DNA of 64,000 bases, taken from the NCBI GenBank assembly GCA_022835595.1, contig BQUP01000003.1, positions 1,660,975 through 1,724,974 on the forward strand, in the 5' to 3' direction. The notes beneath the pieces were generated by a model, which saw nothing but the letters and a program-made list of their open reading frames with translations, was not told where the DNA came from and ran no database searches. Below are positions 7,411 through 56,134 of this stretch, in pieces. This stretch comes from Cystobasidium ongulense (lineage: Eukaryota; Basidiomycota; Cystobasidiomycetes; Cystobasidiales; Cystobasidiaceae). The position numbers and the translations under genes are program-made. Every line of letters starts with the position of its first letter. Position 1 is the stretch's first letter.

Positions 7411-8240
7411 CTACACAGCTTGGCCGTGTGCGCTGGATTTAAGATAGTAGTTGCGACCGTAGATGCCTGTTGATTGTAAGGTAGTAGAGACGGTCAATTT
7501 AAGCGGCTGTGATACAGGAGCGGGCAAGTTTACCGTCTCTCCAGGTTGCTTTCTTGGACTTCTTGACGTAGTACCAGATGCAGGCGACGATGCTGAGCGT
7601 AAGGATGAAGCTGCAGAGATCACCAGTGCCAAAGTTGGCTGCTATCCGCATAACAAAAGAGGCGGGGAGACGAGGGAACATGTGTGTCGTAGGCTACTTA
7701 CTTGATCCAAGCGAAAGCCACCATTGCATCCCAGTTACTATACCCCTTGTAACATAGACTGAATGACTGGGATCCAAAAGTGAGGTTGTTAGTATTCTCT
7801 CTTTGTCGAGTCGACAAGTAGGAAGAAACTGATACATGAGCACTTTCAAAAGACTTACTTCTCCAAATTCCAGATCGATAGATGTGCAAGTGACAGAGGA
7901 GAGTAGAGCTCCAGCTATGAGCCATAGTAAAGCAGTGAAGGCTGTCCAAGCCGCAGCGACGATGAAGGGAAAGGTCCAGTGGATGAGAAGGGAGAGGACC
8001 GTCCAGATAGAAACGAAGAGCGCGAATGCGACTCTTCCATTGTCAGGGAGATTTGGACTGACCCAGCGGCCCGATAAACCTAGCTCGGCGAGACTGAAAA
8101 TGCCTGAATACCGTACAACGACTGGTCAGCTGAAGTCATTTGCAGGAAGGACTATGCCAGGAATGAAGATACTCGCCTAGCAAGGCGAAAGGGATGGCAT
8201 GATACCAGAGTCGAGGCCTGTGGAAGACCTTGCTGGTCAT
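7411..8240 (-). CDS. MARVEL-like four-helix membrane protein, copy A
   Basis: Predicted integral membrane protein with a MARVEL-like layout; function unknown. From the ATG at 8240 the protein begins MTSKVFHRPRLWYHAIPFALLG. It continues after an intron with LAELGLSGRW, hydrophobic segments around FALFVSIWTVLSLLIHWTF and AAAWTAFTALLWLIAGALL, then NWDAMVAFAWI, a last helix and the basic tail KKSKKATWRDG. It ends in YLKSSAHGQAV. Copy B at 9240-10309 has the same exon layout. Compared with B, copy A has lost the original start: the homologous ATG is AAG at 8310-8308. The Pro-rich N-terminal region is readable only in another frame, so the protein is probably N-terminally truncated and begins at 8240. 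Downstream exons look intact. Confidence 0.7.
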
Positions 8241-9239: not shown

Positions 9240-10309
9240 TCATACAGCTGCGGGACTGACTTCCTTCATGCCGACCGTATCGCCTCGAAGACCGTGTGCT
9301 CTGGGCTTCAGGTAGTAATTTCGTCCGTAGATGCCTGTTGTACATAAGGTAATCCAGACGGTCAGCTACAGCATGTGTATGACTGAAATAAACGAACTTA
9401 CCGTCTCTCCAGGTTGCCTTCTTGGATTTCTTAACATAGTACCAAATGGAAGCAAGAATTAAGAGGGTGAGGATGAAGCTGGACAAAGATGGAGTTTAGA
9501 ACCTCGCTTTGAATTCTACAGCAAGAGGGGCAGGGAAACAATGCGAGGGAGATTACGCACTTGATCCAAGCGAAGGCTACCATTGCATCCCATTTGCTGT
9601 ATCCTGTGAAACATACTCTTATGGACTAATTGCACGCACATTGAAGGTCAGTACTTATGACAGTATAGCGGTGTATGAAGCTGGGTGCATGAGCAAAGGG
9701 ATGAACTCACTCTTCCGAATCCAGCATCAACATTCGTGCAAGAGGCAGAGGCGAGTACAGCTCCAGCGACGAGCCAGAGCACGGCAGTGAAAGCTGCCCA
9801 AGCTGCAGCGATGATGAAGGGGAAGGTCCAATGAATGAGAAGAGAGAGGACGGTCCAGATGGAGACGAAGAGGGCGAATCCAACTCTTCCATTCCTGAAG
9901 AGAGCCGCGTTGATCCAGTCGCCTGTCAGACCTAGCTCGGTGAGACTGAAGATGCCTGGTTTTTGTAAAGAGCTATGATCAGCTCAACTCGGTCGGGCGT
10001 CTGGCAGTAGCAGGAGTACTGGCACTCGCCTAGCAAGGCAAAAGGTATGATGTGATACCAGAATCGAGGTATGCCGAAGCTCCTGTTGTTGCCGTGTTTG
10101 TTATCGTGTTCTGCTGGGACTGGTGATTGCTGAGGTACCGGTGCTGGCGGAGGGACCGGTGTTGGCTGGGGGAGCTGCTCGACGTGAGTCGCGGTGGCTG
10201 GTGTGGACAGCGGGTGATATTCGACCGGTGGTAGCTGACGGACCAGTCCTGGCTTGGGGAGCTGGTGCTGCTCCTCCTCGACCTGGGTCGTGGTGATTGT
10301 CGTGGACAT
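9240..10309 (-). CDS. MARVEL-like four-helix membrane protein, copy B
   Basis: Full-length paralogue of copy A. It begins MSTTITTTQVEEEQHQ at 10309 with a Pro/Gln-rich cytosolic leader of about 80 residues (repeats such as PTPVPPPAPVPQQ). The membrane part follows: RFWYHIIPFALLG, LTELGLTGDW, VSIWTVLSLLIHWTFPF, AAAWAAFTAVLWLVAGAVL with a luminal Cys, KWDAMVAFAWI, and a fourth helix ending LASIWYYVKKSKKATWRDG. The tail IYGRNYYLKPRAHGL..SPAAV ends at 9240. Spacing of the helices and the WxxxxAF motif resemble MARVEL domains of fungal plasma-membrane proteins; this assignment is by eye. A family role in membrane apposition is known for animal members, not demonstrated here. Confidence 0.75.
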
Positions 10310-42855: not shown

Positions 42856-45017
42856 TCACCGACACCTCAAAACCTCAAAGCGGTGTAGTAATTGATCTAA
42901 GTTACCCAAATGTTGACCTAGTATTTGTCTTCTTCTCTCATACGTATTACCTCTGCCATCTGTTTTGCCTTCATTCTCAGGTTCCCCTACCTTCATGATC
43001 TCAGTCTCTACCACTTCATCCATCTCCGGCGTCGCGACCCTACTATGCGAAGCGAATAAACCTTTGGTTTGTCCTGATACACCCGGCAGTCCAGTCAGAT
43101 TTCGATATGGCTGTCCAACAGCTCCCCCAACCGCTGAAGCATGAAGTGATCTCGAGAGCCTTCTTCGAATCGCATCTTTAGCGTCATTTGAAGTTGTGCG
43201 ACCCAGTGCAGGCGATTCGGAGGTTCTTTCGCGCAGATTGACAGCAGGCGTGTCTCTGCTGCGTTGTCTTGATAGAGCTGGAGACTCGCGACTACGCTGC
43301 CTTTCGAGAGCAGGTGAGTATCTACTCGTAGGCCTATCGAATGCCGGTGATCCGGACGGATATGCACTCTTGGATGGTGACCAGGGGAATCTGGGTGGGG
43401 GCTTGAAGTAGTTCTCCTCTGATACAGAAGAGGGAGCGACTCGGGTTTGAGACGTCTTCTTCTCATTGCCTATTTCTTCTTGCGGCGATATGGGTGGGAT
43501 ATTATTGGCACTTGACGATAGTCGGACACTAGAGGCTGCTAGGATAGATTTAGGCCTACCGCTAGGTGAAGCGGGCGGAACACTTCGTATCGGTCGAGAA
43601 TCTGCCATGCTCGCTGGTGAAGCGCTTTGCGGCCTGCTGGATCGTTTTGCTCTTGGGCTGCCGTCATCCACGTGACTGTCGCTAGATTCTACGCCTACAG
43701 ACACGTGCAAAGGTCGCTTGCGAGGTGACGCAGCAACGGCAGCTGCTGATCTCGATAGCGCCAACTGTGTTTTCTCAAATGTCCGTGCAGGCTTGGAGGG
43801 CGTTGTCGGCGTCCATGCGTCATGTGCCGATTCTAGCATTGCACGCAGTCGATTGTCTGTAGGTGTTCTCGGCGCAGCTGTGCTTGAGGAAGCGTGTGCT
43901 ATGGATGGCCGTACTCTATCTTGACGTGGTGTAGAAGGCGTTGCTGGAGTTGGTGGTTCTCGCATAGAAGCCTGGGCTTTAACGGCTGCTTGACGTTCTG
44001 TCTCTGGGTATAGCCAGAAGTAGAGGAACTCGAGACATTTGACTCTGCATATAGACTCTTCGTCAGCTTCTCGAACCTGTATGTGACATACATGTATGTA
44101 GACTGACTTGGCAGCTTTTCCAGCATCAACCTTGCCACGGAGAAGTCGCGATACCTCGACAATACCATTGCACGTCTCGAAGAGCTTCACATTTTCAGGG
44201 CTATCGACCAGTGCGCAGAGTAGTGTTTCAAGCGTAAGTTCAGCCAGTGTCGGTGCTGCTTCATTTGCATCAGATTTACTAAGCTTCGAGCCGAAGACTG
44301 ATTGTCCAAAGTCAAAGTGGGTAGATGACAGTCGTGGTGAGGCTGATGCTGTTGATTCGGGAAGTGAAGATGTTGTGTGAGTAGCTGTTGCGGGTGTCGA
44401 GTGATCGGGCAGCGTCAAGCAAGTCACGAGCAGCTGGATGTAGAAACTGATTGTCAACTGTGTTGTGGCAGACTATTGCGATGAATGACACACCTCCATG
44501 TTGCACTGTATCCCGAACAGACGCCTGCTTGATGCATGCAGAAGCAGGAAGCCTTGGAGGAGCTGCATTGTTTGTCCGAGTTGCGCGAAGATAGCCTGGT
44601 AATCGTCTGAAGGAGGAGAGCTGGTGCATAAGCTGGCAGTCTCAATCTACTCTCCTACGTCTGCATTGCTGCTCACCTCCATACTTGTGGTACTGCAGCC
44701 TGAGAAGACACCTCGCGAGGAAGTCGATCAGCCTCGCTACCACTAAACAAAAGGCAGGACAGACGGCCATTGAAGCATCATCAGCTTTCTAGACTTGCTT
44801 GGAGTTGATATCTTTGGAAATGATATTTACCGTTGTGCAAGAACGACTCTTGCAGCTGGAGGAATCCAGCTCTCGTGATTGTCGAGCCATCTCGCAGGCC
44901 ACTCTCGAGCGCAATTGCAGTGAGGACGCCTCGGAGACGGTCGAGTGCGTTGCTGAGTTGGCTGCTAGAGGCTCGCAAGGACAGCAAGTCTGATAGGACA
45001 GCTTGAAGCTCGTCCAT
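42856..45017 (-). CDS. cdc14: Cdc14, septation initiation network component (fission-yeast type)
   Basis: Non-catalytic partner of the Sid1 kinase in the septation initiation network, which controls cytokinesis; it is not the Cdc14 phosphatase. The first in-frame ATG is at 45017 (MDELQAVLSDLLSLRASSSQ). Later exons give AGFLQLQESFLHN and, from about 44290 on, TLAELTLETLLCALVDSPEN, VKLFETCNGIVEVSRLLRG and VKCLEFLYFWLYPE, the conserved helical repeat core. The C-terminal 300 residues are disordered and rich in Ser-Pro and Thr-Pro, with a repeated motif (RQRSRESPALSRQRSRDTPA). It ends at 42856. Frames upstream of 45017 lack ATG. A broken second copy is at 49.0-51.8 kb. Confidence 0.82.
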
Positions 45018-45077
45018 TTGAGCTCTTGAGTCTGCTCTCGAATTGCCGACAACAAGAAAGCCATTCAACTACAACAT

Positions 45078-45083
45078 CACGTG
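45078..45083. promoter_or_regulatory. E-box CACGTG upstream of cdc14
   Basis: A CACGTG palindrome in ACAACATCACGTGTTYGTAT context, 61 bp upstream of the cdc14 ATG. The same context is kept at 51829-51834 in the duplicated copy. Confidence 0.4.
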
Positions 45084-45183
45084 TTTGTATTCGCTTGCCA
45101 CTCCGGCATACGTCGTACTGCTGCTACACCTGGAAGCCCTATCATGACTGTATAGTGTGTGAATGCTGCTTGGGCCATCGGTA

Positions 45184-45420
45184 TCAAGCTTGCTTTCTGG
45201 TTCTCCTTGTCCTGCTGCTCAAGCAGTGATCCCGATTGCCGGCGAACTCCAACGCAGCATTCGCAAGGTCAGTCTCTCTCTTCACCTTCACCTTCTGCCA
45301 CTGTGCGTGCAAACCAGATACAAAGTGGTCCACACGGCCCGTCAGGTATGTACAGCATGACTGCCGCCCCTGTTCGTGCATTGCACATCTCGCTGAAGGA
45401 CATGTCATTGTTTATGAGCT
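45184..45420 (-). pseudogene. 3' remnant of the tocopherol-cyclase-like gene
   Basis: On the minus strand the frame ending at 45184 reads QKVKVKRETDLANAALEFAG before diverging. The intact gene at 51930-53135 has WKKVEETELENAALEFGGDW at its end. DNA similarity continues through the spacer into cdc14. Only the last 60-70 codons remain, altered by frame changes, and the rest of the gene is absent. Confidence 0.75.
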
Positions 45421-45504
45421 TTACTGCATGGCTGACATCTATCATTCGCTTCATCAGGCAAGGCTGAAAGCTGTGCATTCCTTGCCCTGTTATCAACAGC
45501 CAAG

Positions 45505-46286
45505 CTATGGCGAGGGTACCGAGAGTACTCCTTGTTCGAACTGTGCCACGGAAAGTGTTACAGTCAGTCATTTAAAATACATGCACTCGAGCAGTGCGGG
45601 TCAGCTTACATGCCAGACGCGAATCCGAAGAACCAAATTCTTCTCATTCAGCTTTGGCGTTGCAAGCGTGGTGTTGAGGATGGGGCGAGTGACATCCTCG
45701 ATGAGGCCATATCCTGCAACAGCAATCATCTAAGACGTAGGCCAAAGTGCGCCATCTTGTCTCACTCACCGACAACGTTATTGAGCCAGGCGTAAGAGCC
45801 GTCGAGACTAGTCTCGAAGCGGGCTTCCAAATGGCCCGATGTATCAGCCTGATAGGCTCCGTTCGTACGGATATACACATTATGTCCATCATCGGTGACT
45901 AAATTGTATCGAGTGTCGGGGTAGAACGCTCCGCTGGAGTATGCTAATCCCCAGTCAGCGCCCAAGTTGAGGACTTTGCCTGGAATGCAGCAAGATTGTC
46001 AGTCAACAACAATGTGAAGTACTTTGGATCGTCGCCAGGGATCTTGTCAACTCAACGTACCCGATATTTTTGGTCCTGAGAATACACCACCGACGATGGG
46101 ATAAACGGCGCGATCTCCTTGAGGTGTATTCGGTATAACAAACCCTGTTTCCACCTCTACGAACATTTCGTAGAGAAATTTCAATGGCGGTGGGTTTGGA
46201 TCACTAGCATACCCAGAAACAGCGGCAGCTGAGATCATTGGAAGCACCCATGTAAATAATGCAGTGGATGGCAGTAGGAACTTCAT
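45505..46286 (-). CDS. secreted DUF3237-family protein
   Basis: Small beta-barrel protein of the DUF3237 (UPF0311) family; function unknown. It begins MKFLLPSTALFTWVLPMISA (46286), a clear signal peptide. The mature part reads LKFLYEMFVEVETGFVIPNT and RAVYPIVGGVFSGPKISG, then KVLNLGADWGLAYSSGAFYP, VYIRTNGAYQADTSGHLEAR and LDGSYAWLNNVVG. These match the family's alternating strands (GGxFxGPxixGxVLxxGADW, YAWLNxxVxxG). The final exon starts at YGLIEDVTRP and can be spliced once more to end FEQGVLSVPSP at 45505, or stops at 45601 unspliced. Length is about 190 residues. It is one of the genes between the two halves of the segmental duplication. Confidence 0.8.
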
Positions 46287-47302
46287 CGTCTTGTTGCTTT
46301 CAGATCGACTTGAGCGACTCTTCCGAAAATCGGTGAGAGCAAAAGTGTAGTGGAGAGAAAGCGACCAGAAGAGGGACTCTTAAGCTGTGTGTGATTTTGG
46401 GTGAAGCCAGACAGCTATCAGCCGGCACCTTCTTGACGCTGAAGGTCTTTACCCATGTGGATTGCCGCCGAGGAGGGTGGGTGGCTCATCGTATAGCCAG
46501 TGCAGTCTGTAGGGAGCCGCGAGCAAGTGAAAGCTAGGCGGAGACGATGCTCACACAGCAGGTGGTGGTGGAGACGACTAGGCACGACGGGAAGGGCCTC
46601 GCAAAGAATGGTGGCAAATTTAGGCCTCGACGTCTGCAGCCGGCGAGCATGCAACATCTTACCTCCAGCTGACTACATCGAGAACTGGATCATCTTCGTA
46701 GCCTAAGCGTAGGCAGGGGCCAGGTCAACCGGTATCGGTGTATTCCGGGTCTTTGCGGCTATCTCGACTTTAGCGAAGTTAAGCGAAGGTAAACGAATCT
46801 AAGCGAATCTAAGCGAGAGTCAGGCATACTAAAGAGTCATGCTTTCGGCCTCTGACATGCCAGATGCCAGTAGTACTGAGGGCCTCCGCGAAGGTAATTT
46901 TACAGATATTCAGCTCCGGAGACTACCCCGATAGCTGTTGCGACTGCGCGCGTGCGTGCAACATGTGTCCCGAAAGCGAAAGAAGGCCTCCCACTGGCGA
47001 AATCTTCAGCCGGGAAAAAGGACTGATTGTCGCTAGAAGAGTACAAACACTGCGATCCTTTGTCTTGCGTCTTTCTCTTCTTCTTCTCACTTCCAAGCTA
47101 CCTCACTCCCTATCCCTTTTCCTCTGTGTGGACCGACCGGGACCTATAGTTGCACGAAACACGAGGCAGACGACCTCTTGAGACTGAGCATTGATACAGC
47201 ATTGTTCGTAAGCTCCCCACAGTCATTATCCAAGTCTCCTGAACATGCTCAAATGCTAATATAAGTACATGTTTGGCATACTTACATAGCTCGTCCATCG
47301 AC
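46287..47302. other. intergenic, DUF3237 and lipase promoters
   Basis: About 1 kb between opposed starts. It holds a 10-bp tandem repeat (46771-46820) and a pyrimidine-rich tract at 47060-47130 before the lipase gene. No gene supported. Confidence 0.45.
46771..46820 (+). repeat. five tandem 10-bp units, consensus AAGCGAANNT
   Basis: The units read TAGCGAAGTT, AAGCGAAGGT, AAACGAATCT, AAGCGAATCT and AAGCGAGAGT, in exact 10-bp register. The period equals one helical turn, so the sites would face the same side of the DNA. A related AAGCGAAGTA occurs at 21-30. Confidence 0.8.
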
Positions 47303-48774
47303 ATGCTCGCCAGATTTGTCACAGTGGCTTTGGCTGCTTCGCACTTGGTTGCCTCTACCGCCTTGCCTCTACATGCGCGTCAAAATACCAACGGCAGCAC
47401 CGACCTAGGCAGCCTGGAACAAGAATATACTGCTTTCTTGGAACAATATAATGCGAAGGCGAACGCAGTGAACGTCTTCAATGAATCGTTTTACGAAACT
47501 CCATCGAATTTCAGCAAGAGTATGAAAGCTGGCGAAGTCCTCAAGCTCGACCGAATCTCTGGTACCGATCTTAATAAGCAATATGGTTACCCAGCTGGGT
47601 TGACCTTGTGGCGTCTCATGTACACATCGCGGGACGTCTTCAACCAGACAGTGCCGGCAACAGCATTTGTTCTGGCGCCGTATACAGAATCAAAAGGCGC
47701 TGTAGCATGGACGCATGGAACCAGTGGAATAACACGAGACTGCGCTCCCTCGATACAGCGAACGCTTTATTACGACTTCGATGGACTATTCCAGCTGGTA
47801 TTGCAAGGGTACATAGTGGTGGCAACTGACTACGCGGGTCAGGGCAGCGATACCCAGGTAAGCTGACAGATTAAACCTGCTGTTCAAGGGCTCCTTCTCC
47901 ACCATATTGGATCTGATGCTCTACTTTCGCCAACCAGTTTAATTACATAGCCGGCGTCAGTCATGCCGATGACGCATCCTTCTCAATCGTAGCGGCGCGC
48001 AAGGCTTTACCAAAGCTAGATCTCACAAAGTGGGCTGTGGTGGGTCACAGTGAAGGCGGTATGTCTGCATGGGCAACAGCCGAGCGGGAGGCACACTCTC
48101 CCATCGGCGGCTATCTAGGCGGAGTATCTCTGGCGCCCTCAATGGACCCTACCGAAATCAACCGAAGGGCTTTCTTGACCGAATCGTCTCGACAAGCTCT
48201 CACAGACAGCGGCTCAGTCTTCTATCCAGTCTTGTTCGCTGAGACAATCCGACGCGTGTTCCCTACTCTAGTGCTTTCGGACTATCTCACAGACACCGGT
48301 CTTCAGCTTCTCAAGCTCAATCTGCAAGGCGGATGCTATGCTGCTGCTGCCACATTCTTCCCGACCTTCTCACTCGAACAAGTTTGGAAGCGAAACGATC
48401 TTTGGACCTCTGAACAAGCCCTTGCTTGGCAGGCTATCACTAAAGATCAGGGCAAGGGTAAACTCGACAAGCCACTCTTGGTCATCCAAGGTACAGCGGA
48501 TGAAGCTGTCAGTCCAGCCGTCAACGAAGACACGTTTGATGCTCACTGCAAGCGATTCAACAACAATTCACCCATTGAATACATCAAATATCCTGGCTTC
48601 AGACATGGCCCGGTCATCCTTGCATCGATTCAGAAATGGACTCCCTTCCTCGCCAGCCTTTTTGCAGGTGAAAAACCAAACGGATTCGGGTATTGCCAGA
48701 AAACGACAATTGAACCCAAGATCTCAGCTGCGAGCACTATGGAAAACTACGCTGTGGCATATGCTGGCCGATGA
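47303..48774 (+). CDS. secretory lipase (LIP family, alpha/beta hydrolase)
   Basis: Extracellular triacylglycerol lipase of the secretory-lipase family known from Candida LIP genes. It starts MLARFVTVALAASHLVASTA (47303), a signal peptide followed by an N-terminal cap. The family region shows AGEVLKLDRISGTDLNKQYG, GAVAWTHGTSGITRDCAPSI and GYIVVATDYAGQGSD. After one intron (47859-47937) the nucleophile elbow is VVGHSEGGMSAW. The acid is in QGTADEAVSP and the His in YPGFRHGPVILA. It ends NYAVAYAGR at 48774, about 460 residues. Two exons only, unusual here. It lies between the two halves of the cdc14 duplication. Confidence 0.92.
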
Positions 48775-49583
48775 TAGAGATAGGGTGGTCCGAACAACTT
48801 GACGTGGAAATGTCTGTCCCAATACATACCTTTTACATGAGCTGGAAATGCAGGATAGCTGCTGAGGAAGACTCATCCCTGTATAGCTAGCTATCACAGT
48901 ATCGTGCTATGTCGAAATGCAGAGCAGCTCTATTAAGACAGGCCACTCAAAGTTGGGATTTCCAGCTGCTTTGCCCGAACAGTAATACTTTCACCATACT
49001 TATAGAGGCTGCCAGGATAAATGTAGGCCGACGTCAGGGAGCAAGTGTCGGTGCTGCCGCGCATGCATCGGATTTAGCAAGCTTCGGACCGAGGACTGAT
49101 TGTCCAAAGTCAAAGTGAGTCGATGCTAATCCTGGTGAGGCTGACGCTGTTGATTCCGAAAGTGAAGATGTTGTGTGAGTGGTTGTTGCGGGTGTCAAGG
49201 AATTGTGCTGCGATAAGTAAGTCACGAGCAGCTGGTAGTAGAATTTGCTTGTCAAGCGTATTCTGTCAGACTATTGCGACAAATTACACAGCTTTGAGTT
49301 TGCTTGTACACTCCCATGGTGATGCTGTAGATGCCGCGGGTTTACTGCCTGAAGATATATCAGTTATTTGGGAAGAGCCATTACCCGGAGAAACATTGGA
49401 GCCCCGCCTCCCCGCCCGAAGGTGGCGCTTCAGACAGGAAGCAATGCCTTTTTTTGGACGATAGCGGGCTTCGATTTCACACCAACCGTGATCCAATCTG
49501 ACCTGTTCATTTGGAAGCCGATTCACTGGAACATCCATACTGGCCTTAGTATCTGCACTGGCACTGCCAGAGCGACCCCGAGC
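48775..49583. other. lipase 3' flank with cdc14 remnant and Zn2Cys6 upstream region
   Basis: Holds the left cdc14 remnant (49005-49285) and about 300 bp upstream of the Zn2Cys6 ATG. The upstream open frame starting at 49368 lacks ATG. Confidence 0.5.
49005..49285 (-). pseudogene. cdc14 remnant, middle part
   Basis: Minus strand matches cdc14 44240-44490 at DNA and protein level: TATTTHTTSSLSESTASASP, THFDFGQSVLGPKLAKSDA against STHFDFGQSVFGSKLSKSDA. Similarity stops abruptly near 49285, where the Zn2Cys6 locus begins. Downstream cdc14 exons, including the helical core, are absent except a short match near 49005 to 43535. Confidence 0.85.
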
Positions 49584-51415
49584 ATGGAAGAAGCGATCAC
49601 CAACAGTATTATTGTGGGTGGTAGCAGCAGGAAGCGCAGGACAAAAACAGGATGTCGCGAATGCAGGGAGAGGCGCATCAAATGCATTGAAGGCGCTGTG
49701 AATCAAGATGGCGACCGGACTCAATGCGTCAAATGCTCGCATCGTCGGCAAGCATGTCACTATCCAGATTTCACGACAATGCAGGGCCAGTACGGCGATG
49801 AGGGAGATGGGAAACGTACAACTCTCTGGAAGCTTGCTCCGATAGCACAGTCAAGATTGCTGGTTTCGCGATCTCAGCCTACGTCCCAATCACAACCACA
49901 ATCACAATCGCCGTCCAGCATGTACGGCAATCAATATAGTACTTTCGATGCGGTATTCGCTCCGCCACATCGACAGGCTCACCTACAAGGAGGAGTAGGA
50001 CCGGGAAGCTTGTCAATCTGTGGACTATCTCCAGCATCTCGAATCTCTTTGTTCCGCGGCATCGAACCCGATAGTCCCGCCCACTTCCTTGTGACTTACT
50101 TGTTCCAAGGCAAATTCAGTCGTATCGGTGCTTTTGGAGAATCTGATCCATCCGTCGACCATTTTCAAACCAGTACACTCCCCTTTTTAGCCTATCACTT
50201 TGCATCTACAACTCTTGGGGTGAATGATGAAGATGATCTACTCTATCATTCGGCTTTACGTCTTAGTGCTACAACCGCCAAGCGCAATCAGCCCCAAGTC
50301 CCTCTAGCGGAGTATACTGCTGAACATGCTGAAGCTGGTGAAAAAGCTTTGGCAAGAATCAAGACAAATAGGCGCAAGAAATCAGAGAAATACGTGTGAG
50401 TTCTTGCCTGCTTTGTATTGGGCCGAGCGGAAAAGTAGGGTCGAATGACAAAGACGTCGTCTTCGGAACAACCAGGGTCGGTCTTACTCTCCTCAATCTT
50501 GCCGCTCTGAGCGACAACGCCCCGATATCGGAGCTGGTTGCTGCCGATTTTCAAGCAGGATTGAGCAGTCTCCTGGGTCATCAAATTTACGACGTGATGT
50601 GCATCTATGCCATCCAGCTGGCGCTAGTCAATGGCACACGTCCAGTCGTCAACGTCCCTTTGGCTGGTGATGTGAATCTCGAGACTACCTTTGGCATCTC
50701 CCGAGAAATGTGGAGCGCGACAAATACAACGGTGATCCTACTTTCTCATGCGAGGACACTGTACGCCCTGCCAGGAGGTATCAGCGAGGATGTGCTGTAC
50801 CACGATGCTTGTTCGACACTCGAAGAGAGCGAAGCTGCACTGCAGGCTGCGCTCTACTCGAATACAGCTCTGCGCATCGCGCAGGGAACACGGGTAAGGG
50901 AAATCCTCCGCATGCTTTCGACACGCTTCCCAGTGTGACTGACTTGCGGTGTACATGTGGACAGATGCAACACCTGGCCTTGTCGATCTTGATTCTATGT
51001 GAGGTGTCCAGGACGAAACCAAGCGAACCAATCATCCAACAGCATTGCCATGATATTCTTTCGACTTTCCAAGCCATCATACCAGAGCAACGTTTGGTCG
51101 GCTGTGACTTACCCATGACGGTGAGGAGCATCCGATCCTCGGAGGCCGATGAATGCCTATACGTTGCTTAGTTTACTCACATATACGTAATTCGAACAGA
51201 TTGCCGCTGCCTACTGTTCAGATGAGCAAGTTCGAGGTGAAATCATCACGGCGATAAAGCAGAGCATGCTCACGAATTTGCCTATCGAGCAAACACCGGC
51301 ACCAGTAACTATTGCAGAGATATGCTTGTCTTTACACGGGCACGGCAAACCTGCGGCCTCGTATATGCCATGGCGTGAAGCTGCCAAATATGCCAATCTG
51401 TCGATGATTTTTTGA
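49584..51415 (+). CDS. Zn2Cys6 fungal transcription factor
   Basis: Fungal-specific zinc-cluster regulator. The first in-frame ATG is at 49584 (MEEAITNSIIVGGSSRKRRT). The binuclear cluster is TKTGCRECRERRIKCIEG, followed after a longer loop by TQCVKCSHRRQACHYPDF; the six Cys are all present. A Gln/Ser/Pro stretch (SQPTSQSQPQSQSPSS) leads to the regulatory domain, with LFRGIEPDSPAHFLVTYLFQ, HSALRLSATTAKRNQ, VGLTLLNLAALSDNAPISEL and HQIYDVMCIYAIQLALVNG. Exons join near 50398/50459, 50893/50966, 51000/51008 and 51119/51201. The last exon ends AAKYANLSMIF at 51413-51415. It occupies the place where a 240-bp part of the duplicated cdc14 should lie. Target genes unknown; the adjacent lipase is one candidate. 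Confidence 0.85.
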
Positions 51416-51484
51416 GAACCAACGAGTGAAGCAGGTCTGGCTCCTGAATTGTGGGTGTCTGCGGCTTCTTGGCCTATCGACAAC

Positions 51485-51819
51485 CAAGTAACTAAACAAA
51501 GGCAGGACGGACCGACAGCAATTGAAGCATCACCAGCTTTCCAAACTTGTTCGAAGTATGTATATTTGGAGGTATCCTTACCTTTGTGCAAGAAGGACTC
51601 TTGGAGCTGGAGGAATTCAGCTTTCGGAGTTTTCGAGCTATCTTGCAGCGTTTGACCCGGGGCGCTTACAGTGAAGACGCCTCCGAGACAGTCCAGTGAG
51701 TTGCTGAGCTGGTTGGAAGAGGCTTGCAAGGACAGCAAGTGTTGCAAGACACCTTGAAGCTCGCCCGTTCGAGCTCTTGAGCGTGTTCTGGAATTGACCG
51801 CAAGAAGAAAGCCGTTCAA
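51485..51819 (-). pseudogene. cdc14 remnant, 5' part
   Basis: Minus strand reads GELQGVLQHLLSLQASSNQL, SNSLDCLGGVFTVS and AEFLQLQESFLHK, matching the first exons of cdc14 at 45017-44820. The start Met of cdc14 (AQMDELQ) corresponds to Thr here (ARTGELQ; ATG to ACG). Non-coding similarity runs left to about 51485 and right without a break into the tocopherol-cyclase-like gene. Broken and without its core exons. Confidence 0.88.
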
Positions 51820-51929
51820 TCACAACATCACGTGTTCGTATTGGCTTTGCCACTGCGGCCTACTACTGCTACACTTGAAGCTACCTATCAAGACTACGTA
51901 GTGCACTACCATTACTTGAGCCAATGCTA

Positions 51930-53135
51930 TCAAGCTTTCTTTCTTTGGTTCTCTTTCTCCTGCTGCTCAAGCCACCAGTGATCCCAATCACCGCCAAATT
52001 CCAAGGCAGCATTCTCGAGTTCGGTCTCTTCCACCTTCTTCCAGGGTGCGAACCAGCCTTTTTCGTAACATTCTATCTTGTAACGAGAAACAAAACTTTC
52101 GTGACAGTAGTGCGTTGTATGACCTTGTGGTAAAGGCGCCGACATGGTCTTGAAAGAATCGATAGGCGCTTTGGCTGAAATGACTAATTTTCTACCGAGG
52201 AAAGGATTCGAGCATTCGAGGCGAAGTTCGCCCGATACACTATCGCATTTTGACAGATTTGTAAGGGGTCTAAAACCAAATAGAGACATTGTAGAAGCCG
52301 GTCCAAAATTCCAGTTGCGTTGCGAAGTAGGCGAACGATAGGCCACCATAAAAGAGCTTAGGAATGAAGTTAATTTCCCACCAGCTATCGCGAGAGAGCC
52401 CTTTCCAGAGTCGGAAGGGAAACCTTGACACCATATCCAGGCGGTGGGGAAGCCTGCATTATTTATCACGTGGGGCTCAAGTCAGGATAGCTCAAATCTT
52501 TCTCAGGCCAAAGCATAAAGTGACATACCGACACCCCAGTTCTTCTCCTGGTGGCACAGACCGTTTTTCTGAAGGAGCGTCCTTTCGCCTTCTTTGATAG
52601 TAAGGCTACACTTAGATCGAGTCGAAAAGATGTGCCATTTTAGAGGGAGAGGCAGGAATCTACTTATCCACATCGGCCCAAGCAGTGAATGTGGCGTTGC
52701 ATCGGTGATAGCTAGCTGTATGTCGAGCTTCTGCTTGGTTTCAGGATGGGTAAAGTGCTGTCGGTATAGTTGATGACTCGGCTGCACATCCAAGCTGAAA
52801 GTCGCTTGCTCTTCCGGTATGCTCGCATACAGTTGGAAAGCAGCCACTCCATTTGCGTCACGCTCAGCTTTCCGAGTAGGCACCATATCTCGAGGAAAGA
52901 AATCACACGAGAAGGGATGTATCTCGTTCTTGTCTTCAACTGCTTGATTTGGTGTAGCATAGTACCCTACGTGGCATAGATGCGGACGGCTCTTTGCTCG
53001 CCAGACACTCGACATGATCGTCACAAAGGTCGATCCATCATCCAGCTGCACACGCGTGTACGGACCATCGAAGCCCCACCAGGTATGCGGCTGATACAGG
53101 TCTCGCAGGACATGCTTGCGGAGGAAGTCGAGCAT
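51930..53135 (-). CDS. tocopherol-cyclase-like beta-barrel protein
   Basis: Conserved fungal protein resembling tocopherol cyclase. It starts MLDFLRKHVLRDLYQPHTWW (53135). The family motifs are WGFDGPYTRVQL near the start, HVGYYATPNQAVEDKNEIHP, LDIQLAITDATPH in the middle and, after one intron near 52500, the EKNWG box followed by SFPTAWIWCQGF, which is the tocopherol-cyclase signature. Later sequence reads YRSPTSQRNWNFGP, FGFRPLTNLSKCDSVSGELR and VSRYKIECYEKGWFAPWK, ending QQEKENQRKKA at 51930. Fungi do not make tocopherol, so the function is unknown. The neighbouring copy at 45.2 kb keeps only the 3' end. Length is about 385 residues. Confidence 0.8.
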
Positions 53136-53426
53136 GTTGGTGGTTTTCCGAGGTTATGGGAAAGATAACGCTGTTAGTAGGCAAGCTGATCGAGCAGGCT
53201 TTCTTTTGCGCGAACTACTACGTATAACAATCTGGATTACCAAGTCAAGCGAGTTCGTTCTGGATTACCTTACTGCGCTATCGTACACCCAGACACACAT
53301 TGAAGCACAATCATGGCTGTATGAAAGTCAGGTCAATTCGCTCTGAAAGGCCAACTGGCTGGAGGTTGCGTACTGGCCCTCCCCCTAGAATAGAGAGGCT
53401 AGTCATCTGCTTTATCTGATAGCACA

Positions 53427-56134
53427 ATGTCAAGTATGCTATCCAATCAGCCAAAACCAGACTCCTTCAGCTCGAGCACTTCTCGAAGCCAAACGCCACA
53501 GGAGCAACTAGCGGAGCGAAGAGAACGATTGAAGCGCAAAGCTGAAGAAGAGTTGCATGCCTCTCGACCTCGGACAGTCGGCGATACATTGTCTCCACTA
53601 CATGCCCCTAGAGATGCCAAAGGGAAATCGCGTGAGGTGCCAGTACCTCCTTCAGTCACCGTCGACCCCGGCAACAATGAAGTGTCAACGAGACCACAGA
53701 CAACCGAGCTGGATCTGGACATGCTTCTAGATGGATTAGGAATGGATGAAGGTCTTAAGCAAATGGCTAAAACGGATCCCGTATTCCGTGAAGAGTTGAT
53801 CAGCCAGCTAATGACTATCCCTCTGGCTGGAACTGGTGAAGAAGCCTTTGATTTGGATGAAAGTGATGACGAAGCTGGCATTGAGGACTACGATTTTGAT
53901 CCAAGTACAATCTGTAGGTTTGACTAGCCCCGCCGTACGACCGCTTCTTGCCAGCCTGCTGACAATTGGGTTCGATGTTTTTTTGCCTAGATGGTCCACC
54001 TCGTCCACCTATACCTTTCAAGTTCAAGAATGGAGCGCTCAGAATGACGAGGACGCCAGGTCGAGCCGAGAGGAATACCTCGAACTGCATATCGATGGAA
54101 GAGCTCATAGATAAGGACACTCTAGTGACATGTTGCTGTTTTGCCTTCTTCATCGGAGAGACCGAATTCTATCGCTATTTACCGATGCAACCTCAAGCTA
54201 GAGTACCTGTAAGTCAGATGAATTCTCCAATCAAAATAGGCTGTTATATTCTGACATATGCGATAGATCTATGTTGGCAGAGATGTCAATCTGGATCCGG
54301 TCGCACCGCAAGTCATGAAGGTTCTCGGCGAGGAAAGAGGCTTTTTTGGTAAGGGCAAAATATCTGCGAGGCAGCTGGAGAAGATAAAACCCTACATGAA
54401 CGAGGCGTATAGAAAGCTATACGGTACGTTGTTCTCACAGCGAGTATTTCAGTGCTATGCACACTGAGTCATTTGACGATGCGACGTATTATAGGGGAAA
54501 ACTTTCATCCTTTCTATCCTCGCTGTGCTGGATGTGCCCATTCAAAAATTCTACTACTCGTTTATCCTACATACTTACGGCTTGTAATTACATCGTGCAA
54601 CTTCATGAACATTGATCTTCGAGAAGGTGACAATCACTGGTACGTATGCCAGTGTATTCGTTCTTTTGAAAAGTAGCTGAGTTGCAAATCCCAACAAACA
54701 AAAAGGTATATACACGACTTGCCTCGCTACGCATCCAACAAAGCCCTATCACCGAACACCTCTTTTGAAAAACTTTTCACCGTTCATTTGCGAGATTTAA
54801 ATGTTCCAACAAGCTTCCTCGATTTACATTTCAGCGGTCGATTCGATTTCAGTGCAATCAAAGTACATCTTTTAACGTCTCGACCAGGATTGTCTAGTGG
54901 TATACTATCCGAAAGTTCAGGTTTATTAAGATTAAAGAAAATAATATCAGAATACTTAGTTGAAGAAAGGATAGAAATGTTAAAGAATGGAATACACTTA
55001 GAAATCTGTTCTGGAAGTATTGGACATTTGAACGATAAATGGTTGAAAGAATTTTTTGATTGTGCCAGTGGCAAGAAATTTTTAAAATTAGCTAAATTAG
55101 ATTGTGATATTCCGTCTATTGAAATTGTTTTTCCAACTTATACTGATGTTGAAAAATGTGATGAACTGGCAAGAACTGTGAGCTTTTTCAATCTAATAGT
55201 CTCTTTCCCAGGGTTTCTCGCATCATGAACCTGGTCCTCATGAAGGCTAAATTCCGTCTTCTGTGTGGTATTAGGTCGCTGCTAAGAATATTGGGTGTCA
55301 TATGAACTGGGGAAATGCAAGAGAAGAAATAAGAAGATTATTTATGCATTATAAATCTAAAGATCCAGGGAAGTTGTTTCATATGAAATTAATGATAGCT
55401 ACAAACGCGCAAGATTATCACGCTCCACCTTTTTATATCTATGTTGGGTAAGGTTTCCTAAACTTTTTTTCAAGATTGACGTGTATGAGAAAGTATCAGC
55501 TGACGATTTGGAGCCTTTTCGTCTCATTTTCCATTGTTACAGATCCGCAAATTTCTCCAACGGAGCGTAAGGTCTACTTCCTTCCTGTGACCCGACGAAG
55601 GAAGTTGGTTGATGTGATAGTTACTTATGTCCGCTCTAGGTGGGGAAGACTTGGCAAAGCACCTAAGGGAGACAGAACTTCACCGCCTGGTGCACTTCGG
55701 GTAGAAAAATGTAAGTCATTTGGTTGCTTTCGTTTGTTCCTTCCATTTTCGTTCGTCTACAGTGTTTAGGCTATCTTAAGCTGATGACTTTTCATTCTGT
55801 TCTCTTGTAACAGGTGTCAATTATGAATGCGGAGTCATTATACCACGTTCAGTATTGATGACTCTCCTTGAACCGGGATCAGAATGGCAAGATATCGTTC
55901 CTTACGATAGACCAGCAAAACCATACAAGTGAGTTGCTCATATCTGCGCTACGATAACGCCGAATTATGGCTCGCTCTTGGAAACTACCTTCTCATCTGA
56001 CGCTTGTATTGACATTGAATCTTTTCGCGTGTGATGCGTGTGATTCCCTGATATAATTTTCAAGCATACATGAGAGCGATGGATCTAATATGCCATACCT
56101 CAAGAATCCGAATGTAGAGCCAGATGACTACTAG
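53427..56134 (+). CDS. TDP1: tyrosyl-DNA phosphodiesterase Tdp1
   Basis: Phospholipase-D-superfamily repair enzyme that removes topoisomerase I and other adducts from DNA 3' ends. A disordered leader begins MSSMLSNQPKPDSF (53427), with Lys/Glu-rich and acidic stretches (FDLDESDDEAGIEDYDFD). The catalytic region follows over many exons: PRPPIPFKFKNGALRMTRTP, then the first HxK motif in GCAHSKILLLVYPT and TSCNFMNIDL, and the second in KLFHMKLMIATN with YVGSANFSPT and AWGRLGKAP-type sequence after splicing. The end reads CGVIIPRSVLMTLLEPGSEW, YDRPAKPYN.., stop at 56132-56134. At least nine exons. Several central exons (54880-55170) are visibly richer in A and T than neighbouring genes. Confidence 0.88.

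What the first reader, a model, noticed from the sequence alone, without database searches (positions are those of the whole stretch)
42856..53135. Reciprocal decay of a duplicated cdc14 / tocopherol-cyclase-like pair
The order cdc14 - spacer - cyclase-like gene, both on the minus strand, occurs twice: at 42.9-45.4 kb with intact cdc14 and a short cyclase remnant, and at 49.0-53.1 kb with an intact cyclase and broken cdc14. The spacer with its CACGTG is conserved in both. Each locus kept one gene, a textbook reciprocal loss captured within 10 kb. Similarity is still clear in noncoding DNA, so the event is not ancient.
Basis: partly seen in the sequence, partly recalled or inferred. Interest (0 to 1): 0.75.

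Follow-up and report, generated by a model that had tools for sequence, protein, structure and literature searches.

The report
Split gene pair with duplicated junction
In a fungus, a stretch of DNA spanning the join between two neighbouring genes was copied in place and other genes now lie between the copies, leaving each gene intact once and broken once; this is an ordinary local duplication and need not be two whole gene pairs that each lost one member.

Summary
Minus-strand cdc14 (SIN component, PF08045), a ~160-bp spacer and a tocopherol-cyclase-like gene (PF14249) occur twice: copy A with intact cdc14 and only the last ~49 cyclase residues, copy B with intact cyclase and a shattered cdc14. 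Coding and noncoding DNA are alike at 76-82%. I found a third cdc14 piece in B (49003-49032); a transcription-factor gene sits where B's exons 2-3 should be, and a 3.7-kb stretch with DUF3237 and lipase genes lies between the copies. Equal contig lengths in two protein searches imply that three relatives carry both genes together, one within 4,486 bp against 10,280 bp here, so a close pair is probably ancestral. 'Textbook reciprocal loss' is not shown: a tandem copy whose ends fall inside both genes leaves each gene intact once from the start, with the broken ends facing each other as here. B's cdc14 later lost more. Codon positions show no constraint on the remnant (25/29/26). The conserved CACGTG is no more than chance. 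A minor, ordinary event; a sister genome would decide.

The parts
42856..45017 (-). intact cdc14 gene (copy A), SIN component; 45017-44831, 44742-44677, 44606-44494, 44457-42856 (last stretch probably holds one more small intron)
   Evidence: PF08045 E 1.1e-14; splice model
45018..45183 (-). spacer of copy A with CACGTG at 45078; right limit approximate
   Evidence: about 76% identical to B spacer; site
45184..45318 (-). cyclase 3' remnant of copy A (about the last 49 residues, frame broken); limits approximate
   Evidence: tblastn residues 328-373, E 9e-6; 77% identity up to 45330, 44% in 45331-45420
45319..49002 (.). segment between the two copies
   Evidence: no significant similarity to the missing gene ends or outer flanks
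45601..46286 (-). DUF3237 gene, signal-peptide-like start (by eye), inside the middle segment; limits read by eye
   Evidence: PF11578 E 3.7e-11 and 4.5e-6 on two exons
47303..48774 (+). secretory-lipase-like alpha/beta hydrolase gene inside the middle segment; start read by eye
   Evidence: PF00561 E 2.3e-6; some relatives are named secretory lipase
49003..49032 (-). cdc14 exon 5 piece of copy B (matches 43530-43559)
   Evidence: 26 of 30; score 22, 0 of 3000 shuffles as good, best of 146 control comparisons 15
49040..49293 (-). cdc14 exon 4 (5' part) and intron 3 of copy B; matches 44242-44495
   Evidence: 82%, no gap
49584..51414 (+). fungal transcription-factor gene in the place of cdc14 exons 2-3 in copy B; open (513 aa) in one four-exon splice model
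   Evidence: PF11951 E 2.5e-5, above cut-off; PF00172 Zn2Cys6 E 0.02, below cut-off; model
51491..51768 (-). cdc14 intron 1 and exon 1 of copy B, start codon lost; matches 44742-45017
   Evidence: 77-78%
51769..51929 (-). spacer of copy B with CACGTG at 51829
51930..53135 (-). intact tocopherol-cyclase-like gene (copy B), 376 aa, two exons
   Evidence: hits up to 90% identical over 54% of the length

Best explanation
The ancestor had one tight pair, cyclase followed by cdc14 on the same strand with a ~160-bp spacer (inferred). A segment of at least 1.8 kb straddling that junction, from inside or beyond cdc14 exon 5 to inside the cyclase, was duplicated in direct orientation (similarity shown). 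At least one, probably both, of the broken genes were born truncated, because a tandem duplication with breakpoints inside two genes leaves each gene intact once: the left gene in the left copy, the right gene in the right copy (inferred). The copied junction kept the promoter side of cdc14 in copy A and the 3' end of the cyclase in copy B, so both genes could survive while a 3.7-kb segment with DUF3237 and lipase genes came to lie between the copies, with the duplication or afterwards (inferred). The inert cdc14 piece in B then lost about 680 nt between its exon-4 and exon-5 pieces and had exons 2-3 replaced by a transcription-factor gene (present state shown, order inferred).
For: Similar divergence in intron 1 (78%), exon 1 (77%), spacer (76%) and cyclase 3' end (77%), with exon 4 at 82%, points to one event. 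Similarity ends sharply near 45318. Other pieces of the missing ends were not found: leaving aside the 30-base piece, the best match of each of the seven comparisons was equalled by 40-99% of shuffles. Changes by codon position are 25/29/26 over 134 codons, dN/dS 0.74 (bootstrap 0.43-1.32), as expected for one constrained and one unconstrained copy. Relatives: cyclase and cdc14 hits share contig lengths 4486, 16503 and 123888, all from source 'lgn' (3 of 10 cdc14 hits, against 68 cyclase hits); 4,486 bp cannot hold the 10,280 bp seen here. None of the 41 lipase hits has a contig length seen in those two lists (compared by eye). At 15 sites where the intact cyclase differs from all three of P0001-P0003, the A remnant agrees with the intact gene at 9 and with a relative at 1, so the duplication is younger than that split.
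Against: The original breakpoints are not seen; the exon-5 piece shows that B once reached further into cdc14 than the main block suggests and that deletions have happened, so full duplication is possible. Exons 1 and 4 of the remnant have no gap (0 in about 400 nt) while intron 1, spacer and cyclase end have 8 events in 384 aligned bases: a mild hint (hand estimate, p about 0.04) that the frame was kept for a while. Absence of stops is unremarkable (probability 0.18-0.38). The right flank 53136-54500 scored against the middle segment at a level reached by only 6 of 100 shuffles on each strand; with the flank extended to 55500 it was 40% of 300 shuffles on the plus strand, so I count it as noise. 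Contig identity is inferred from equal length and source, only the longest contig of each cluster is shown, and the cdc14 search scored only the 7,993 candidates sharing most words.
Confidence: 0.58

Rival explanations
1. One reading: the whole pair was duplicated in tandem and both copies worked; then cdc14 was lost from B and the cyclase from A (reciprocal loss), by separate losses or by one deletion across the inner junction.
For: The B remnant holds pieces of cdc14 exons 1, 4 and 5, spanning the counterpart of 1.49 of the 2.16 kb of cdc14; no indels in its exons 1 and 4.
Against: The missing ends are the inner, facing ones, which one event explains; no significant remains of the rest of either gene or of the outer flanks beyond the 30-base piece; dN/dS 0.74 and flat codon positions show no clear constraint, though the interval is wide.
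Confidence: 0.2
2. Mixed: one gene (most likely cdc14) was copied whole and later decayed, while the other (cyclase) was truncated from the start.
For: Long spread of cdc14 pieces in B against a single short cyclase end in A.
Against: No further piece of the last 674 nt of cdc14 was found in B (next best match equalled by 99% of shuffles).
Confidence: 0.18
3. Remnants are independent insertions or chance matches.
For: None found.
Against: Collinear, same-strand similarity of coding and noncoding DNA, E down to 3.8e-108.
Confidence: 0.01

Closest known systems
Insertions joined to tandem or partly tandem duplications at repaired breaks (Vaughn and Bennetzen 2014 on rice; known here only through passages of the review PMC7407515; the paper itself is not held)
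   Same: direct duplication near a break, sometimes with other DNA added; no complete extra gene needed
   Different: the rice insertions are 10-1000 bp by the review's passage; here at least 1.8 kb is duplicated and 3.7 kb with two genes lies between
Reciprocal gene loss after duplication (recalled from work on yeasts after whole-genome duplication; only a search listing seen)
   Same: one intact and one broken copy of each of two genes
   Different: here two neighbouring genes within 10 kb, with the missing ends on the inner sides; two complete pairs are not shown
Ordinary tandem duplication with truncated copies (general knowledge)
   Same: direct orientation, same contig, truncated copies
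   Different: other genes lie between the copies and inside one remnant

Membership tests
partial tandem duplication | two copies in direct orientation, collinear, coding and noncoding alike | tested here: met
partial tandem duplication | left copy keeps the left gene, right copy keeps the right gene; missing ends on the inner sides | tested here: met
   B has internal losses besides
partial tandem duplication | breakpoints inside the genes, joined directly at birth | tested here: inconclusive
   ends now flank a 3.7-kb segment; B has later deletions
reciprocal gene loss | two complete copies of both genes existed | tested here: inconclusive
   no significant remains of the missing ends or outer flanks beyond a 30-base cdc14 piece; no sister genome DNA read
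reciprocal gene loss | both copies under selection before loss | tested here: inconclusive
   dN/dS 0.74 (0.43-1.32), codon positions 25/29/26; no indels in exons 1 and 4
reciprocal gene loss | single pair in relatives before duplication | tested here: inconclusive
   equal contig lengths imply linkage in three relatives; contigs not read; copy number there not known
insertion with long target duplication | added segment exactly between the copies, absent there in relatives | tested here: inconclusive
   45319-49002 lies between the copies; a 4,486-bp contig has no room for it; lipase hits have other contig lengths; donor-site search not answered

The most novel reading that the evidence does not exclude
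One event both inserted a two-gene segment (DUF3237 and lipase) into a tight gene pair and duplicated at least 1.8 kb of the target, so that the junction's promoter and 3' end were supplied twice and neither neighbour was harmed: a long 'cushioning' target duplication that lets gene cargo enter a compact fungal genome.
Probability: 0.2. Interest if true: 0.45.

Novelty: new member of a known kind. Interest (0 to 1): 0.25.

Why it matters
It is a readable case of how a compact fungal genome splits a tight gene pair without losing either gene, and a caution: mirror-image remnants look like reciprocal loss but can follow directly from one partial duplication. Biologically it is minor.

Tried and rejected
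Chance or independent insertions: rejected by collinear similarity. Selection on the CACGTG: not supported, the identical run is no longer than chance. Further pieces: cdc14 exons 2-3 against the transcription-factor block (26 and 10 of 100 shuffles as good on the two strands; 84% and 90% of 300 for its two edges), the rest of the cyclase against 45316-47000 (85 and 26 of 100) and the whole window by tblastn, and the outer flanks (left 54 and 92 of 100, right 6 and 6 of 100; right, longer flank, 40% of 300): nothing that I count as significant. My first idea that the duplicated unit ended at 44242 fell when the exon-5 piece was found; that piece first showed as a score reached by 1 of 100 shuffles, then 0 of 300 and 0 of 3000. 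Inverted repeats: five pairs of 14-25 nt, none a convincing terminal repeat; the one nearest the edges of the transcription-factor block (49317-49341 / 51511-51535, 72%) has its right arm in cdc14 intron 1. dN/dS could not be polarised: I saw no relative's exon 1 or 5' part of exon 4 that would serve among the cdc14 proteins fetched. A donor copy of the middle segment elsewhere in the genome: search not answered (below). Organism not identified. Papers: searches were seen as listings only (6 of 6, 12 of 22, 12 of 137 and 8 of 19 papers listed); the 8 titles listed name no cdc14-cyclase pair. PMC7407515 was seen in passages only.

Full report
What is there. The window lies on contig 3 of a 19.8-Mb genome in 19 contigs; the gene families and introns say fungus (inference), the species is not identified. 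On the minus strand, reading from high to low coordinates, an intact tocopherol-cyclase-like gene (53135-51930, two exons, PF14249) is followed by a 161-bp spacer and pieces of cdc14 (copy B), then a middle segment with a lipase gene and a DUF3237 gene, then the last part of a cyclase, a spacer and an intact cdc14 (45017-42856, PF08045) (copy A).

Similarity. Blocks 44242-44495 / 49040-49293 and 44742-45289 / 51491-52038 match at 82% and 76%. By part: intron 1 78%, exon 1 77%, spacer 76%, cyclase end 77%; in 45331-45420 it falls to 44%. A further piece, 43530-43559 / 49003-49032 (26 of 30), sits 7 bases from the second copy of exon 4, same strand and order; 0 of 3000 dinucleotide-preserving shuffles score as high and the best of 146 control comparisons scores 15 against 22. 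So B once reached at least into the last cdc14 stretch (called exon 5 here; the intron before it is probable, not proven) and has since lost about 680 nt between its exon-4 and exon-5 pieces. Genome searches with 43000-45000 and 49040-53200 as DNA found only these copies (the tool warns that its counts are lower bounds).

What is missing and where. In B the stretch from exon 2 to exon 3 is not found, and a plus-strand transcription-factor gene (49584-51414, PF11951; the Zn2Cys6 match is below its cut-off) stands in its place; the ends of similarity lie within a few bases of the exon borders, which I cannot explain and treat as coincidence. Between the copies, 45319-49002 showed no similarity that I count as significant to the missing cyclase part, the cdc14 3' end or the outer flanks. 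The least clear case is the right flank: 53136-54500 scored at a level reached by 6 of 100 shuffles on each strand, but a longer flank gave 40% of 300.

Relatives. The protein searches give the length of the longest contig of each hit. Of 10 cdc14 hits (only the 7,993 candidates sharing most words were scored), three share length and source with hits of the cyclase search (68 hits): 4486 (P0071/P0008), 16503 (P0070/P0007) and 123888 (P0077/P0001). I read this as the same contigs; the tool gives no contig names, so it is an inference. The 4,486-bp case holds the last cdc14 exon and the first cyclase exon, whose counterparts here span 10,280 bp, so that relative would lack about 5.8 kb of what lies between them; gene order and orientation there were not seen. 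The A cyclase remnant agrees with the intact gene at 9 of 15 sites at which that gene differs from P0001-P0003, and with a relative at 1, so the duplication is younger than their split.

Age and selection. dS is 0.29 and dN 0.21 over 134 codons; changes by codon position are 25, 29, 26; dN/dS is 0.74 with a wide interval (0.43-1.32). This fits one constrained gene and one remnant without constraint but does not prove it. Against it, remnant exons 1 and 4 show no indel while intron 1, spacer and cyclase end show 8 events in 384 aligned bases; by hand I put this near p 0.04, a mild hint of some frame retention. Lack of stops is unremarkable (0.18-0.38).

Reading. A tandem duplication whose ends lie inside two neighbouring genes leaves this picture without any later loss of a working gene: left gene whole in the left copy, right gene whole in the right copy, the broken ends facing each other. 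A mixed history, with cdc14 copied whole and then decayed, remains possible. I prefer the partial duplication (0.58), with full reciprocal loss at 0.20 and the mixed case at 0.18; these odds are judgement, not computed. The middle genes may have come with the duplication or later; a donor site could not be searched because the genome search stopped answering. The copied junction would explain why both genes survived: cdc14 keeps its upstream spacer in A and the cyclase its downstream spacer in B (inference).

Verdict. Confirmed observation, partly supported interpretation, ordinary event; interest 0.25.

Noticed in passing
7424-8216 and 9292-10069 (also 6859-6993/8690-8806 and 8274-8379/10273-10391): A second direct duplication (68-69% identity), apparently older, of minus-strand open frames; one frame of one copy has a weak, below-cut-off MARVEL match (PF01284, E 0.002).
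   Followed up: partly
49294-51490: The transcription-factor block replaces almost exactly exon 2 to exon 3 of the cdc14 copy, with the ends of similarity within a few bases of exon borders.
   Followed up: partly
47303-48774: Lipase gene whose closest database relative is 95% identical and the next over most of its length only 64%, which may mean a patchy distribution.
   Followed up: no
51930-53135: Tocopherol-cyclase-like gene in a fungus: the hits of 44% identity or more bear no species name; the hits with a fungal name are 25-33% identical, and from recall (not looked up) all are ascomycetes.
   Followed up: no
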